Positions 20,622 to 27,038 of a DNA stretch of 27,038 bases are shown one piece after another. The position numbers and the translations under genes are program-made. Position 1 is the first letter of the stretch. The number at the start of each line of letters is the position of its first letter. Location: positions 1 through 27,038 of IMG/VR virus record IMGVR_UViG_3300025120_000444; one strand, 5' to 3'. The notes beneath the pieces were generated by a model. The model worked only from the letters and a program-made list of their open reading frames with translations. It was not told the origin of the DNA and made no database searches. This DNA comes from a virus.

Positions 20622-21725
20622 TTACGCTAAACAATACGCAGCAGTCACGATAGCTTCAGGTCGAAGTATCTTTCTGCCATACAAATGCATACCACGAACA
20701 ATATCAGCGAAACTGTCAGGGTCTCTGTAAGTTTCTGTCTTATTAATTTGTTCAGCAGTAGCTATAGCTGAAGAATGACCTGCTACAATAATACCAAAGT
20801 TTGAAGCATTCTGACCACCTGTTGTCGCAGGACCTGTGCCTAGTGACGGAAGGTTGTTAGATGTATATACTTTAAAACCATGTAAATTACTTAAAACAAG
20901 ACCATTTTTCAAACCACCTGCATCTCCACCAAAGTCTGAGTTTAGAAGTCTTGAGTCTTCATCTTTTAACATTTCGATAAAAACTGGATCAAGAACTAAC
21001 CACCTACTTGATGTGTCAACATTTTGTTGGTCTAATAGTCTAGACATACGTGCTATAACTTGTAATGGAAATGCATTACCAGTTGTTCCACTTTTAGCAG
21101 CAGTTGCTCCACCTGCTCTTGGCTCAAGTCCAATAGCTTGGTTTGCAGTACCTGCAGTACCATTACTCTGTGTAAAATCAGAGGAATCAAGTGACATTGA
21201 AGTCAATAATTCTGCTCCAACTAAGTTAGAACCACTAGAAGCTGTAGATACAGCCTTAGCACCATTTACTGTTGTGTTAACAGCACTCGCAGCACTGTGA
21301 AGTGATGCTTGTTTAAAACCTGATAAGTAACCAAGAACATCTTGGTCAAATTGATCAGATAGCCTATAAGCAGCTCTATCACTAGCTAACTGTTGAAAGT
21401 TAACATGTGAATGTGCTTCTTCAATATCGTCAACCTTAAATGCAAAGTAATTAGCTTTGTCAATTGTTAGGCTGAACTCTTCATCGTCAAGGTCTTGAGG
21501 TGTAATTGCTGTACCTCTTGTATAAGCCTTAACTGTAATTTCAGGTTCTTTAATAACCTTAACGGAATCACCCATGTTAGCAATTTCGCCAAAGTAATCA
21601 GAATTAGTGATTGCTTCAACGACTGATGACTTGCGAAATGCAAGTTGCACCTGTTTGCTGTAAATAACTGGGCTAAAATTTCCATTAGGAAGGTTACCAT
21701 AACCTGTCGCAGTAGAAAATGCCAT
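20622..21725 (-). CDS. Major capsid protein, HK97 fold, 367 aa
   Basis: The shell protein. Blocks comparable with T7 gp10 are VKVIKEPEITVKAYTRGT (N-arm and strand), LTIDKANYFAFKVDDIEEAH, LASDRAAYRLSDQFDQDVLG, RWLVLDPVFIEMLKD with a following LHGFKVYTSNNL, and the C-terminal YGRKILRPEAIVTAAY, where T7 has LRPEA. An upstream in-frame ATG at 21773 would add 16 residues (with CILC), but AGGAGATATAAAATG gives a clear ribosome-binding site for ATG 21725, whose product begins MAFSTATGYGNLPNG. The scaffold gene lies upstream, separated by an oxygenase gene, and a long 229-base leader precedes it, as expected for the most abundant virion protein. Confidence 0.88.
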   Translation of the reverse strand: MAFSTATGYGNLPNGNFSPVIYSKQVQLAFRKSSVVEAITNSDYFGEIANMGDSVKVIKEPEITVKAYTRGTAITPQDLDDEEFSLTIDKANYFAFKVDDIEEAHSHVNFQQLASDRAAYRLSDQFDQDVLGYLSGFKQASLHSAASAVNTTVNGAKAVSTASSGSNLVGAELLTSMSLDSSDFTQSNGTAGTANQAIGLEPRAGGATAAKSGTTGNAFPLQVIARMSRLLDQQNVDTSSRWLVLDPVFIEMLKDEDSRLLNSDFGGDAGGLKNGLVLSNLHGFKVYTSNNLPSLGTGPATTGGQNASNFGIIVAGHSSAIATAEQINKTETYRDPDSFADIVRGMHLYGRKILRPEAIVTAAYCLA

Positions 21726-21807
21726 TTTATATCTCCTATATTTTAAGCATAGTATACAGATGCGAACATACAAATGTAATAACAGGGCTGACTTACGTTA
21801 GGTGCAA

Positions 21808-21940: not shown

Positions 21941-21968
21941 GTTATACTCATAAATTACTGTTTGTCAA
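21941..21968 (-). promoter_or_regulatory. Possible sigma-70 promoter for the capsid gene
   Basis: On the minus strand TTGACA (plus 21963-21968, inside the end of the oxygenase gene) is followed after 16 bases by TATAAC (21941-21946) and directly by TATAAT (21935-21940). The -35 is perfect; the first -10 matches five of six at a slightly short spacing. It would add transcripts of capsid and decoration that end at the terminator near 20050. In AT-rich DNA TATAAT-like words are common, so support is moderate. Confidence 0.5.
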
Positions 21969-22632
21969 CAGTTTCTTTTGGAACTTCAACAAAAGTAAAG
22001 TTTACACTAAAGGAACGTCTTTCTCCTTTAGTCTTAAATGGATAAACACAATGAAATAATTCTGCAGGAAATATATAAAAATCTCCTACTTTTGGTTTAA
22101 CCATAAAATTTGTTTGGTTGTATCCTGAAGATGTACCATGAGCAAATTGTATATGCCCATTTGCAGGATGATGGTCTTTATAATCTTCTTCCCACTCTTT
22201 CTCTATACCTTTAGGTAACTTTAGATAACCTACACAGGACATTCTAGCACCTGTGTGAATGTGTAAGGGGTTGTATTCATTCTCAAATTGCCTTACAAAC
22301 CATCCTGAAGCTATTTGTATTCCATGATTAAAGTTTTCAATATCTAGTTTAGTTTCTCCAAAAGAATGTCTGTATTCAACATAGTTATGAAATCTACCTA
22401 TAAAATGTGCAAACTCATTATGCCATAGTTGTTCTATTTCTTTAGTAAACTTTAATTCTTGTTTTACTTTACCTACAAGTTTATCAGACCAATCTTCTAA
22501 ATCAGGGTTCATTAACTCATTCATCTTTCGTAAGAAAGCAGGAGTCATTTTTTTATAACCCATTACAGGACCAAAAGGTGCTATGTATTCCTCATCTTTT
22601 TTAGGAGTATATATTTTACTTTGATGTGCCAT
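21955..22632 (-). CDS. 2-oxoglutarate/Fe(II)-dependent oxygenase, 225 aa
   Basis: A probable dioxygenase that uses 2-oxoglutarate, iron and oxygen to hydroxylate a substrate. The double-stranded beta-helix motifs are NPLHIHTGARMSCVGYLKLP (His124/His126, with the strand after it), GDFYIFPAELFHCVYPF (His194, distal iron ligand) and ERRSFSVNF (Arg205 or Arg206, 2-oxoglutarate carboxylate). The H-x-H form and the FP-x-x-x-x-H block resemble the phage and bacterial 2OG-FeII_Oxy_5 group. The substrate is unknown. Its start is nine bases after the scaffold stop (GGAGCAGAGC before ATG), and it sits between scaffold and capsid, suggesting co-expression with head assembly. Confidence 0.85.
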   Translation of the reverse strand: MAHQSKIYTPKKDEEYIAPFGPVMGYKKMTPAFLRKMNELMNPDLEDWSDKLVGKVKQELKFTKEIEQLWHNEFAHFIGRFHNYVEYRHSFGETKLDIENFNHGIQIASGWFVRQFENEYNPLHIHTGARMSCVGYLKLPKGIEKEWEEDYKDHHPANGHIQFAHGTSSGYNQTNFMVKPKVGDFYIFPAELFHCVYPFKTKGERRSFSVNFTFVEVPKETVDKQ

Positions 22633-22641
22633 GCTCTGCTC

Positions 22642-23514
22642 CTACCTTGCTGAACCAGATACATCATATACAAACCTACCACTTCTTATAGATTCCATTA
22701 TTGCGTCTGCATTTTTTTCATACTGTTGAGCAGACATTTTTTCTACTTGAGATTCTTTAAATACACCTTTTGTATCTTTTATAGCAGGTTCTGATCTTTC
22801 AGCTTTTGGATTAACACTTTTTGCAGCTTCATTTGTAGGTTCTACTTTTTTTGTAATACCTTTATCAGACTTATATAAATCTATTGCTCTTGCTGCTGAC
22901 CTTGCATCATTGTCGTTATCATACAAAGCATCTTGAACCCATTTAGGTTGTTCTTCTGCCCACTCGTGAAAAACATCACTATCTCTAATAGTATTAAAAT
23001 CAGGATGAAAACGCAGTAACTCAACTTCAGCTTTTTCTTTTACTGCTGTATTCTGCATTTCGTTTATACTAAGCATTCTATCTTCAAGAGTTTTAGCTTG
23101 TTCCATTGCTTTTTTAGTTGCAATAGTTTCAACGATAGCAGCTACATCAGGATATTCTTTTGCCCATGTTTCTATATCTTCATCTGACTTAGGTAATTTA
23201 ATATTTTGTTTTGTCGATTCAGATAATTGACTTTTTAAAGTATCAATCTGTTTTTGAAAGTCTTGTTCTTTTTGTTGAACATGTCTTCTTAAATCACCAT
23301 ATCTTTTCTTAAAAGTTTTTTCTTCAGCATTAGTAGGTTCTTCTTCTTTTTCTTCTGCTTCTACTGTTTCTGAATCATTATCTTTTTTCTGTTCTTCTAT
23401 TAGCTGTTTTAATTCAGCTTCTTCTTTTTCTCTTTTTTCTTCTTGTGAGTAGGGTTTACTCATAAATGCAGCTTTTTTAGGTGTTGCTTCCTTTGTCATT
23501 ACTTTCTCTGACAT
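22642..23514 (-). CDS. Scaffolding protein (capsid assembly), 290 aa
   Basis: A highly charged, helical protein just upstream of the capsid gene, as in T7 gene 9. The first 70 residues are Lys/Glu-rich and likely disordered; a long coiled coil follows (FKKRYGDLRRHVQQKEQDFQ and onward to LKSQLSES). Next is DIETWAKEYPDVAAIVETIA and FHPDFNTIRDSDVFHEWAEE, patterns found in podophage scaffolds, and the end is RSGRFVYDVSGSAR. An in-frame ATG at 23544 adds ten residues, but AAGGAG seven bases before ATG 23514 marks that start. Scaffolds form the core around which the procapsid assembles and are then removed. No protease is seen next to it. Confidence 0.85.
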   Translation of the reverse strand: MSEKVMTKEATPKKAAFMSKPYSQEEKREKEEAELKQLIEEQKKDNDSETVEAEEKEEEPTNAEEKTFKKRYGDLRRHVQQKEQDFQKQIDTLKSQLSESTKQNIKLPKSDEDIETWAKEYPDVAAIVETIATKKAMEQAKTLEDRMLSINEMQNTAVKEKAEVELLRFHPDFNTIRDSDVFHEWAEEQPKWVQDALYDNDNDARSAARAIDLYKSDKGITKKVEPTNEAAKSVNPKAERSEPAIKDTKGVFKESQVEKMSAQQYEKNADAIMESIRSGRFVYDVSGSAR

Positions 23515-23520
23515 ATTTTT

Positions 23521-23526
23521 CTCCTT
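23521..23526 (-). promoter_or_regulatory. Strong Shine-Dalgarno deciding the scaffold start
   Basis: AAGGAG on the minus strand, seven bases from ATG 23514, chosen over the upstream ATG at 23544, which has no comparable site. Confidence 0.8.
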
Positions 23527-23576
23527 AGGGGTTATCGTAGCCAATTAGTTGGGGGATAAGTAGCCATTAATGTAGG

Positions 23577-25262
23577 TTATTTTTTAGAAGCTAACCCACC
23601 ACGCTTCATAACTTTTTTCTTCTTAGGTTTTTTAGATGCTATACCACCTGCTTTAAAACCTCCAAATCTACCACCACTTTTATAAGGTGTTTGTTTTTGC
23701 ATTTTTTCTCTAGCTGTTTCTTGTCTAGCTTTTGCTTGATTTTTTTCTATTTCATCTTTTCTAGCATTTTGGATGTCTTGCATAGCTTTTTGTGCAGCTT
23801 TTTTTATAGCTTCTTCTTGAATTTTTTGTGTTTGTTTAATTTGAGAAGGGTCTTGAATACCTTGACCCATTTTATTTTTAAACTCTTCTATAGTTTCTTC
23901 AACCTCACCTGTTTTATCAGGTTTATTTACAAAGTTAAGATCAGGAATTTGTATAGGTTTATCTGATAATGACGGAGGTCCTTCATCAAAAGGTTTGTCA
24001 TCTGCAGCTAATTCTTTTTGTACTTGGTCTGCAGGTGGTAATCCTCCTGAAACACTAGTATTTACATTTGAACCTATTGTACTACCGTCTAAACTTTTAA
24101 AAGGAGAAGAATCAAGAGTAAAACTTCCCGGTAATGTGCCCGGAAGAGTTCTTCTGTATATTGTGCCTTCAACAGGTGAATCAGTTACACCATCTACAAA
24201 ATCTTGTTCATTAAATTGTTCTGCACTAGTTATTTGTTGTTGTACTTGTTTTGCAGCTTCTTCTAAACTAAAAGGTATAAATCCTTTTTGATTTCTACTT
24301 TGATTAGCTAATTTAATATCAGGAAATAAAAATCCCGGAACTTTTTTACCCATTACTGTATAGTTACCATCTTTAATAAATTGAACAGCTTCTTTAGCAC
24401 TCATTTCTTTATTATCTTCCATAACTTTTCGAATAGCATTTCTATAACTTTCTTGTATGTTATTTTCTCTTTGTTGCATATTTTGAAAAGAAGTTGAATC
24501 ACCTTCTCTATCTTCTTTTTGTGTAACTTGTGCTGTATCTACTCTTACGTCTGTAGGGTCTTCCTCTACTTTTGTAGGGTCTTCATATGTAAAACCTTTA
24601 TCGGTTAGTTCTTTTAATTTTTGTGTATATGCAGGTAATGGTTCTCCACCTTTAAATGCTATATATTCTATTTCGCCATTAGGTCCTACATACTTACGTA
24701 ATTCATCATAACCATAAGATACATCACCACCAAACAAATCTTCAAATGATGCAATAGGTTGTTGTTCAGTAGTTTGTGTAGGTGCACCATAAAATGTAGC
24801 CTGTTCGTCTGCCATAGGTTGATTTGCAGGTTGTTGTGCACTTTCTACAATTGGTGTACGTTGAAACTTAGATGGCTGTGTAAACACACCATTAGCAGCC
24901 ATTACACCACCCTGTGCCATTTCCTGTGGATCATCTTCCATATCTAAGTCATCCATAGTAAAAGGCATATCATCAGGCATTGTAGCTTCTTCTGAGTTAC
25001 CCATCTGACCCATCTCTTCCATACGTTTAAGACCTGCTTTGGCTTCCTGTCTCATCATCATAAGTTTTTCTAAACCTATAAACCTAACCACATCTGCAGG
25101 AAAGACAAATTCGCCTTCACTTAATTGTGCAGGTATATCGTCTCTAACTTCTTCTTGTGCAGAACCTACAGGTACTTCGTTGCCTGATACAGGATCAACT
25201 GTTCCACCATCTTGTTCTAATCCACCCTCTTGAAATAGGCTCATTTGTTGTTGTAAACTCAT
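23577..25262 (-). CDS. Virion structural protein with Lys/Gly-rich tail, 561 aa
   Basis: The N-terminus carries a block recurrent in marine-phage virion proteins: FQEGGLEQDGGTVDPVSGNE, then EEVRDDIPAQLSEGEFVFPA and DVVRFIGLEKLMMMRQEAKAG. Residues 30-80 thus form a small ordered domain. An MAQGGVMAANG patch follows near 115-125. The middle (about 150-430) is Pro/Gln/Asp-rich. A charged helix (about 445-530, EEFKNKMGQ... NARKDEIEKNQAKARQETAR) leads to a basic end with GGFKAGGIASKK and KKKKVMKRGGLASKK, which could touch DNA. The ATG overlaps the preceding gene's stop (ATGA at 25259-25262). The exact role is unknown; DNA or scaffold contact inside the head is inference from the basic tail and from the scaffold gene next door. 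Confidence 0.8.
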   Translation of the reverse strand: MSLQQQMSLFQEGGLEQDGGTVDPVSGNEVPVGSAQEEVRDDIPAQLSEGEFVFPADVVRFIGLEKLMMMRQEAKAGLKRMEEMGQMGNSEEATMPDDMPFTMDDLDMEDDPQEMAQGGVMAANGVFTQPSKFQRTPIVESAQQPANQPMADEQATFYGAPTQTTEQQPIASFEDLFGGDVSYGYDELRKYVGPNGEIEYIAFKGGEPLPAYTQKLKELTDKGFTYEDPTKVEEDPTDVRVDTAQVTQKEDREGDSTSFQNMQQRENNIQESYRNAIRKVMEDNKEMSAKEAVQFIKDGNYTVMGKKVPGFLFPDIKLANQSRNQKGFIPFSLEEAAKQVQQQITSAEQFNEQDFVDGVTDSPVEGTIYRRTLPGTLPGSFTLDSSPFKSLDGSTIGSNVNTSVSGGLPPADQVQKELAADDKPFDEGPPSLSDKPIQIPDLNFVNKPDKTGEVEETIEEFKNKMGQGIQDPSQIKQTQKIQEEAIKKAAQKAMQDIQNARKDEIEKNQAKARQETAREKMQKQTPYKSGGRFGGFKAGGIASKKPKKKKVMKRGGLASKK

Positions 25263-27038
25263 ATCATACCACCTTTGTATCTGTCTAATCTAGGATCACC
25301 TTTTGTTTTTGTTTTACTAAATTTATATTTAAGTTGATCTTGTTCTAATAGCATATAGCTATCTGCATTCATATCTAATTGATCTTGTTCTCTTGTATTT
25401 TTATATATATAAGAATCATATCCATTTTTATTTGCTACCTCTTTTATTTTATTAAACCACACTTTTTTATCTTCAGGATTAATAACTCTATTTTTTTTAC
25501 GCCTAGTTTGTTCTTTTAATGCACTAAGCACTAAATCTTTCCACAATTTTTCATCTATCTCTTCTCTTACCATAGATTGATTTAATTTTGGATTGTAATT
25601 TTTTACATCCATTTCTTTTGCTGCATCAGACATAAAATATGTAACACCTTCATATTCTACTCTAGGTCTATTTTTTAAATCTATCATTGCTTCGGCTGTT
25701 TGTGTCATAAAATTCATTCCAGCTTTATCGTTTGATGCAACTGTTAATTCTCCAATCCACAAATGAGGTTTATTAAATATTCCTACATCAGGAATACGAG
25801 CAGGTTTTAAATTATCTGCAATCTTAAAAGGAAAAGTTCTTTGTCCTTCAGCTTTTAGTTCAAGTCCGTCAACTGTTAAAGTAGGTTTCATTGTAGGTTC
25901 TACTACTCCATACTTCATTTTATTCATAGAATCTGCTTGTCCTTTTGTGCCTACATGAATACCAAAATCACTTTCACCCATTAAATTAAACTTATTCCCT
26001 TCTATTTCTCCTTTACCTAAATGATATACATTTTTTGTATATGTTGTTGTAGGTTTTAATGTTACATCTTTTGGTCTAATAATTATTTCATCTTCAAAAT
26101 TACCTTCATTTAAATCTGCACTTGCTAATATGTCTTTTTTATTTACTTCATATTTTTCTAAAGGTGGGTAATTTTGACGTCGATTCCAAGGTAAACTTTT
26201 TGGATCAAAGTCTGGATTTAAAGTAAAAGATGTTGGTATATCACTTGCATCTATATCATATTTTTTTAAATTTTTAGGGTCTAAACTTCCTGTTCTGTAT
26301 ACAATCATTTTTTCAGGGTATGCTTCTAATTTTTTTTGAGTTAGATTATATATATTTTTTTTAACTTTATTTAACCTATTTTCTGATACTACATTATACA
26401 TACCAAATTCTTTTTTTCCACCAAAAGTTGTGCTATATAATAATTCTGATAAATATTCTCTCGCTTCATATGTATTTGTGTTAAATAAATCTTTAAAATA
26501 ATCTGTAGCAGGTTTTCCTGTAGTGAATACTGTACTAAAAACTTTTTTTGTTGTTGCATCTAAGTTTTCTATATCTGCTGCTTTTAAAGCTGGAACTGTT
26601 TCTCTAGTAACTTCTAATTGAGATTTAGGAAATTTTAAAGGTTCTTTGTATACTTGTTTAGATTTAGGTACATTAACTTTTTCTTTTGGCAAAGATTTTT
26701 TTATTCCTGTTTGTAATCCCTTAACTAATGCCTTACCTGAAATAAGCCCACTAATTATTTCTCCTGTCATTTGTGCAGGATCACTAGAATCTGAAGGTAT
26801 ACCTATTGAATTTAACATTTGATCAAATTTAGCCCTACCAAATTTTTGTTGTAAAAAATCTATCTGTGGTTGTACAGATGTTGCAATAGCAGATATGTTT
26901 TTTGAACCGTAATTTATTGCTAAATCATTTACAAGTTTATTTAATTCTAATAAATCAAAAGGTATAGCTGCTGTGCCTACAGCAACCCCAATACCTGCTT
27001 TTTTCATTCCTTTTGCTTGTTCTTTAGCAAAATCTTTA
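25259..27038 (-). CDS. Large phage protein with two ADP-ribosyltransferase-like domains (5' end outside window)
   Basis: The frame is open through the right edge (upstream of ATG 27007 it reads KDFAKEQAKG), so this is the C-terminal part of a longer protein. Numbering from ATG 27007: residues 5-20 are small and hydrophobic. Residues 215-320 read like an R-S-E ADP-ribosyltransferase: VYR (Arg238), TSFT (Ser260, Thr262) and EDE (Glu305, Glu307) before IIIRPKDVTLKP. Residues 326-565 read like a second, H-Y type fold: VYHLG (His329), FGIHVGT, then NGYDSYIYKN and ADSYMLLEQDQLKY, as in the C-termini of polyvalent-protein ART domains. Function would be transfer of ADP-ribose to host targets if injected with DNA; this is inference from motifs. 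It is followed by a four-base overlap with the next gene. Confidence 0.6.
   Translation of the reverse strand, partial: KDFAKEQAKGMKKAGIGVAVGTAAIPFDLLELNKLVNDLAINYGSKNISAIATSVQPQIDFLQQKFGRAKFDQMLNSIGIPSDSSDPAQMTGEIISGLISGKALVKGLQTGIKKSLPKEKVNVPKSKQVYKEPLKFPKSQLEVTRETVPALKAADIENLDATTKKVFSTVFTTGKPATDYFKDLFNTNTYEAREYLSELLYSTTFGGKKEFGMYNVVSENRLNKVKKNIYNLTQKKLEAYPEKMIVYRTGSLDPKNLKKYDIDASDIPTSFTLNPDFDPKSLPWNRRQNYPPLEKYEVNKKDILASADLNEGNFEDEIIIRPKDVTLKPTTTYTKNVYHLGKGEIEGNKFNLMGESDFGIHVGTKGQADSMNKMKYGVVEPTMKPTLTVDGLELKAEGQRTFPFKIADNLKPARIPDVGIFNKPHLWIGELTVASNDKAGMNFMTQTAEAMIDLKNRPRVEYEGVTYFMSDAAKEMDVKNYNPKLNQSMVREEIDEKLWKDLVLSALKEQTRRKKNRVINPEDKKVWFNKIKEVANKNGYDSYIYKNTREQDQLDMNADSYMLLEQDQLKYKFSKTKTKGDPRLDRYKGGMI

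What the first reader, a model, noticed from the sequence alone, without database searches (positions are those of the whole stretch)
25259..27038. Possible tandem ADP-ribosyltransferase domains in a protein of the virion module
Seen: two regions with separate motif sets (Arg238/TSFT/EDE at 215-320; VYHLG/GIHVGT/GYDSYIY/SYMLLEQDQLK at 326-565). Known: R-S-E and H-Y-E ART folds share such motifs, and T4 packages Alt, an ART that is injected with DNA to modify host RNA polymerase. Inference: a marine phage with two different ART-like folds side by side in one virion-module protein, ahead of the scaffold gene. Either domain may be degenerate: the STS motif is TSFT and the second domain's Tyr and Glu are uncertain.
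Basis: partly seen in the sequence, partly recalled or inferred. Interest (0 to 1): 0.75.

Follow-up and report, generated by a model that had tools for sequence, protein, structure and literature searches.

The report
Two-ART effector of a marine phage
A phage of an ocean-dwelling group carries, next to its capsid genes, a protein that joins two different predicted ADP-ribosyltransferase enzymes, probably packed into the virus particle and delivered with the DNA to modify the bacterium.

Summary
The gene (25259-27037, minus strand) is cut by the window edge; a near-identical contig gives 626 aa. The phage is HMO-2011-type. The C-terminal domain is an ART-fold domain: 23 of 32 aligned members of the family it joins hit Pfam ART-PolyVal, a profile of the others without the motif used for recruitment finds it at E 4e-7, and an AlphaFold model (pTM 0.63) matches viral models. 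Its pair is His-His, not His-Tyr, a subfamily trait. The middle domain has the R / S-[FY]-T / E-x-E signature; across 14 diverse phage relatives Y-R, the T of S-x-T and both E are invariant. Its link to known R-S-E ARTs (T4 ModA/ModB) is only suggestive and its fold was not modelled. The protein is one state of an exchangeable slot behind the portal: relatives lack, replace or swap domain 1 (dS 0.03 against 0.50 for the N-terminus), and slot relatives carry polyvalent-protein domains (LPD23, MPTase-PolyVal). Best reading: a virion-module polyvalent effector with two dissimilar ART domains, presumably injected. Packaging, activity and target are inferred. New variant of a known kind.

The parts
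25259..27037 (-). Gene of the two-ART protein (592 aa in the window, 626 aa complete in L002)
26645..27037 (-). N-terminal helical backbone domain, conserved in the slot variants found in HMO-2011-type contigs
   Evidence: alignment A1, the only part with pLDDT about 60-76 in the full-length model
26054..26590 (-). Domain 1: predicted R-S-E type ART (Arg238, Ser260, Thr262, Glu305, Glu307)
25262..26056 (-). Domain 2: ART domain of a GIH[FVL]GT subfamily related to ART-PolyVal (His329, His351, Asp531, Glu540, Asp549-Ser550, Gln558)
25259..25262 (-). ATGA: stop codon of this gene overlaps the start codon of the next, suggesting translational coupling
23577..25262 (-). Next gene; its conserved N-terminal part (GGTVDPVSGNEVP...LSEGEFVFPADVVRF) is fused to the slot protein in L008, L128, L107 and in isolates CRP-3, CRP-9, CRP-207, CRP-212
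22642..23544 (-). Scaffold-like protein (phrog_13678, unknown function; scaffold by position), marks the virion module
20622..21773 (-). Major capsid protein

Best explanation
The protein is a virion-module polyvalent effector of an HMO-2011-type marine podovirus. Its N-terminal helical domain, with the co-translated next protein, is the constant part that I infer ties it to the particle (next to portal and scaffold). The rest is cargo: an R-S-E type ART (domain 1) followed by an ART of the ART-PolyVal-related GIH[FVL]GT subfamily (domain 2). I infer that it is packaged, ejected with the DNA, and that each domain uses host NAD+ to ADP-ribosylate a host macromolecule early in infection, as T4 Alt does, with different targets. 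Shown: gene, domain homologies, module exchange, gene neighbourhood, purifying selection. Inferred: packaging, injection, NAD use, targets.
For: Virus group: portal of near-identical contig L002 is 77-81% identical to CRP-345, CRP-1 and HMO-2011. Position: portal - small ORF - this gene - next gene - scaffold-like - MCP. Domain 2: 52 of 56 viral stretches with GIHxGTxxQA encode the same domain with YHGT, NPLRxxD and GYDgivYxN..E..DSYivF..QIK; 23 of 32 aligned members hit PF18760, best 3e-21; HMM of the 27 others finds P0002 at E 4e-19 and, without the recruiting motif, E 4e-7 against 0.012 for the best of 5000 shuffles; AlphaFold pTM 0.63, Foldseek viral probability 1.00 for six models. Domain 1: relatives in other large phage proteins (E 2e-45 with the recruiting part, 1e-29 without); Y, R, T of SxT and both E invariant in 14; hhalign to T4 ModA/ModB in register, P 4e-4, reversed controls 0.5-0.9. 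Polyvalent class: slot relative L107 has LPD23 at 1e-8 over cut-off, L128 MPTase-PolyVal 0.004 below cut-off, L008 an ART-PolyVal-like stretch. Module exchange: dS 0.03 for domain 1, 0.27 for domain 2, 0.50 for the N-terminus between L002 and L003.
Against: The window protein itself reaches no ART model in Pfam. Domain 2 has YHLG where relatives have YH[GAS][TS], a change at the nicotinamide-binding loop that could abolish NAD use; dN/dS is about 0.4-0.6, constrained but fast. Domain 1: no Pfam, PDB sequence or significant profile match to a proven ART, fold not tested; the similarity to the solo phage family loses significance when the recruiting part is removed. PDB fold match of domain 2 is weak (E 0.06). 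No proteomics.
Confidence: 0.62

Rival explanations
1. Domain 2 is an active or once-active ART, but domain 1 is a different alpha/beta domain of unknown function (the phrog_25265 / phrog_4776 family) whose Y-R, S-x-T and E-x-E only resemble the R-S-E signature.
For: No Pfam or PDB match; PHROG families are of unknown function; hhalign to T4 ModA/ModB only 20-35% probability; homologues annotated hypothetical.
Against: The positions invariant across 14 divergent members are just those of an R-S-E ART in the right order, and the T4 alignment puts YRG on WRG/YRG and SxT on SxS; reversed controls give nothing.
Confidence: 0.22
2. Both ART-like domains have lost catalysis and serve as binding or structural modules of the internal virion (ejection) protein.
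For: YHLG instead of YHGT and His for Tyr in domain 2; relatively fast evolution; domain 1 is missing in L007 and L020.
Against: Arg, SxT and ExE of domain 1 are invariant in its closest relatives; His329, Asp531, Glu540 and Ser550 are kept in domain 2 across relatives of about 20% identity; the His for Tyr change is shared by the subfamily; a structural part would not be deleted or swapped so freely.
Confidence: 0.15
3. The protein is made in the cell late in infection and acts there (superinfection exclusion, anti-defence, or against competitors), not from the virion.
For: No proteomic evidence of packaging; a late-gene position is compatible with either.
Against: Constant N-terminal part between portal and scaffold genes and fusion to the next virion-module protein in isolates; published reasoning and T4 Alt precedent for packaged ARTs (PMC5512222).
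Confidence: 0.15

Closest known systems
Polyvalent proteins of phages (Iyer et al. 2017, PMC5512222), ART-PolyVal PF18760, prototype in Roseovarius Plymouth podovirus 1 vRNAP
   Same: Large multi-domain proteins of the virion module with ART domains; relatives of this slot carry LPD23 and an MPTase-PolyVal-like domain; the domain 2 family hits PF18760; RPP1 served as positive control.
   Different: Window domain 2 is below detection by PF18760, has His for Tyr, and stands beside an R-S-E type domain; [quoted passage not shown]
T4 Alt / ModA / ModB (R-S-E ARTs)
   Same: Y/W-R, S-x-S/T and E-x-E in the same order; Alt is packaged and injected.
   Different: No significant sequence relation shown; the T4 proteins are not in an exchangeable slot fused to a virion-module protein.
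Cyanopodophage A4 pre-ejectosome protein gp27 (PDB 9k3a chain B)
   Same: Internal ejection protein of a podophage; has a YHGT...GTYFS ART-like motif at 1425 and is the best, weak PDB match of the domain 2 model.
   Different: H-Y type motif, 1717 aa, otherwise unrelated; the profile of the domain 2 family does not detect it.
HMO-2011-type phages CRP-3, CRP-9, CRP-207, CRP-212, HMO-2011
   Same: Same gene order and same C-terminal GGT...DPVSG...LSEGEFV protein.
   Different: Their slot holds other cargo (Hydrolase_2 and methyltransferase-like in CRP-3) or none (HMO-2011, CRP-1).

Membership tests
ART-PolyVal (PF18760, Tox-ART-HYD2) | His in strand 1 (YHGT) | tested here: met
   His329, nearly invariant in A6; own clade has YHLG
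ART-PolyVal (PF18760, Tox-ART-HYD2) | Tyr in strand 2 | tested here: not met
   GIH[FVL]GT: His351; shared by the relatives, but by construction since the recruiting pattern asked for His
ART-PolyVal (PF18760, Tox-ART-HYD2) | Asp/Glu in strand 5 | tested here: inconclusive
   Asp549-Ser550 and Glu540 conserved; which one is catalytic cannot be told
ART-PolyVal (PF18760, Tox-ART-HYD2) | Profile match | tested here: inconclusive
   none for the window protein, 23 of 32 relatives match, relation of window clade to them E 4e-7 without motif
ART superfamily fold (domain 2) | ART fold in a model | tested here: met
   pTM 0.63; BFVD probability 1.00 for six models, ART-named models lower in the list at E 0.08-0.6; PDB match weak
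R-S-E ART (domain 1) | Arg, Ser of STS, Glu of ExE | tested here: met
   R238, S260 (S-[FY]-T), E305/E307
R-S-E ART (domain 1) | Significant profile relation to a proven R-S-E ART | tested here: inconclusive
   hhalign with T4 ModA/ModB family P 4e-4, probability 34%
R-S-E ART (domain 1) | ART fold with the three residues in one cleft | not tested
Phage polyvalent protein | Two or more disparate effector domains in one polypeptide, virion-module gene | tested here: met
Phage polyvalent protein | Packaged and injected | not testable with these tools
   needs proteomics

The most novel reading that the evidence does not exclude
An exchangeable effector slot in an ocean phage group carries a new lineage of R-S-E ART (the phrog_25265/phrog_4776 family) inside genuine polyvalent proteins, paired here with a His-His variant of ART-PolyVal, so that two chemically different ARTs are delivered as one polypeptide.
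Probability: 0.5. Interest if true: 0.65.

Novelty: new variant of a known kind. Interest (0 to 1): 0.55.

Why it matters
HMO-2011-type phages are described as dominant and broadly distributed in the ocean (PMC9038755), and no held paper names both HMO-2011 and an ADP-ribosyltransferase. The slot makes testable whether they take over hosts with injected ADP-ribosylation. It also gives a family of unknown phage proteins (phrog_25265/4776, e.g. LeBron gp117) a concrete prediction, and shows domain-level swapping of cargo in a virion-module protein. The DraG-like ADP-ribosylhydrolases reported in five subgroup I genomes of this group (PMC9038755) fit an ADP-ribosylation theme, though none was found in these contigs.

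Tried and rejected
Pfam scan of the window protein: only MASE9 at 0.2, chance. phmmer and profile searches of the PDB: chance matches only. tblastn in phages with the whole protein: none; with the domains: only chance, e.g. Stenotrophomonas phage Sonora at E 1, which does not align as protein. First AlphaFold job with 8 close relatives: pLDDT 38.6, discarded. Alignment-based viral scans returned only the same clade. Plasmids: one chance match. ADP-ribosylglycohydrolase in these contigs: none. Pattern matches L049, L062, L085, L086 (GIHxGTxxQA) and about half of the DILA...ExE hits were rejected on reading the frames.

Full report
Observation. The ORF is real: 582 aa from the ATG at 27007, open to the window edge. 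The window is a whole 27,038-base virus record, a fragment. L002 (another IMG/VR contig) is identical over all 592 residues and completes the protein to 626 aa. The stop codon overlaps the next start as ATGA.

Which virus. The portal gene just upstream in L002 is 77-81% identical to portals of Roseobacter phages CRP-345 and CRP-1 and of Puniceispirillum phage HMO-2011; the next gene downstream in the window matches the same phages. So this is an HMO-2011-type podovirus.

Neighbourhood and slot. Order in relatives: terminase, portal, small ORF, slot protein, GGTVDPVSG-type protein, scaffold-like protein, capsid. The slot protein has a conserved helical N-terminus and variable cargo. L002, L003, L004: domain 1 + domain 2. 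L007 and L020: domain 2 only (438 aa). L006: a different insert in place of domain 1. L010 and L022: a long other insert before domain 2. L008 (1603 aa): domain 1, further cargo with a stretch hitting ART-PolyVal at E 2e-5 (for one genome, below cut-off), fused to the downstream protein. L128 (1542 aa) and L107 (at least 1298 aa): domain 1 after other cargo, again fused. In isolates the slot holds other cargo, such as Hydrolase_2 and a methyltransferase-like stretch in CRP-3, or nothing in HMO-2011 and CRP-1. L107 carries LPD23 over its cut-off and L128 an MPTase-PolyVal-like stretch under it, both families named for polyvalent proteins (PMC5512222).

Module exchange. Between L002 and L003 synonymous divergence is 0.03 in domain 1, 0.27 in domain 2 and 0.50 in the N-terminal part; L008 shares 88% of domain 1 but 46% of the N-terminus with L002. 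Domain 1 moves as a unit. dN/dS is 0.12-0.81 in domain 1 (the highest value rests on very few changes) and 0.37-0.64 in domain 2: constrained, not decaying freely.

Domain 2. Alone it hits nothing in Pfam, only phrog_7348 weakly. A scan of viral contigs for GIHxGTxxQA gave 56 stretches; 52 encode one domain with YHGT, F..F, the GIH block, NPLRxxDxGxW, GYDgivYxNxxE and DSYivFxpxQIKS, in ORFs up to 3313 aa. In an alignment of 32, 23 members hit ART-PolyVal, best 3e-21. Because the motif recruited them, I rebuilt the profile from the 27 outsiders using only the part after the motif: it finds P0002 at E 4e-7 and clade members down to 1e-9, best shuffle 0.012. With this alignment AlphaFold gave pTM 0.63 and mean pLDDT 63, with core blocks at 75-88. 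Foldseek in BFVD: six models at E below 1e-3 with probability 1.00, one being Tenacibaculum phage pT24, which the C-terminal tblastn had also picked; models named PolyVal ADP-ribosyltransferase follow at E 0.08-0.6. In the PDB only a weak match (E 0.06) to chain B of the cyanophage A4 pre-ejectosome, which is A-4L gp27; that protein has a YHGT...GTYFS motif, so the weak match may be meaningful, but I could not see which residues align. Active site: His329 and His351 take the H-Y places; Glu540 and Asp549-Ser550 are candidates for the third. The HGT motif is HLG in this clade only, so substrate use may be altered or lost.

Domain 1. A scan for DILA...ExE[VI]I[VI] gave 36 stretches, of which L128, L099/L109, L107 and a set of short phage proteins (L097, L098, L104, L111, L115, L123, L125) carry the same arrangement. 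Relation to the large proteins is certain: E 2e-45, and 1e-29 for the part before the recruiting motif. Relation to the short ones: hhalign 96% with the motif included, but not significant without it; phrog_25265, made by others, matches L128 at 0.0015, L107 at 0.06 and L104 at 7e-52. In 14 members the invariant residues are Y-R, the T of S-x-T and both E of E-x-E. The combined profile aligns with T4 ModA/ModB with the R and S motifs in register, P 4e-4, probability 34%, reversed controls 0.5-0.9. I call this a likely R-S-E type ART, not a proven one. Domain 1 and domain 2 profiles do not match each other.

Mechanism. Shown: two dissimilar domains, the second an ART fold, the first with an R-S-E signature; late virion-module position; exchangeable cargo. 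Inferred: particle association through the N-terminus and the coupled or fused downstream protein; ejection with DNA; ADP-ribosylation of host factors at the start of infection, as for T4 Alt (PMC5512222). The reported DraG-like hydrolases in five subgroup I genomes (PMC9038755) fit such chemistry, but none is in the contigs studied.

Novelty. ARTs in phage polyvalent proteins are known. What differs: a likely R-S-E domain in such a protein, where the 2017 survey states that Alt-clade ARTs do not occur; the pairing with a His-His relative of ART-PolyVal; and domain-level swapping in HMO-2011-type phages, for which no held paper mentions an ADP-ribosyltransferase. Hence new variant of a known kind.

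Noticed in passing
window 21955-22632 (-): A 2OG-Fe(II) oxygenase gene (PF13759, 1.6e-18) sits between scaffold-like and capsid genes; relatives L006 and L020 have no ORF of that size there, so it is a second mobile insertion in the virion module.
   Followed up: partly
L096:20116-25269 (Anabaena phage A-4L gp27): The pre-ejectosome protein solved as PDB 9k3a chain B has a YHGT...GTYFSKSSQAA motif near residue 1425, an H-Y type ART signature in a structurally observed ejection protein.
   Followed up: partly
phrog_25265 / phrog_4776 members: L104, L123, L111, L097, LeBron gp117 (L135), Mori gp79 (L137), LysYB1 (L136): Short phage proteins of unknown function with YRG, SWT, A..FA and RGExEVI motifs; predicted stand-alone R-S-E ARTs, common in mycobacteriophages.
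   Followed up: partly
L008:5890-10701 and L128:18-4643: Slot protein and downstream virion-module protein are one ORF here and two ATGA-coupled ORFs in the window: gene fission or fusion.
   Followed up: partly
L010:737-4057 and L022:3292-6108: A cargo region of roughly 750 residues without any Pfam match precedes domain 2.
   Followed up: no
L006:2400-4112: A different insert of about 110 residues (NPITEKDLENPLFFAAMKNE...) replaces domain 1.
   Followed up: no
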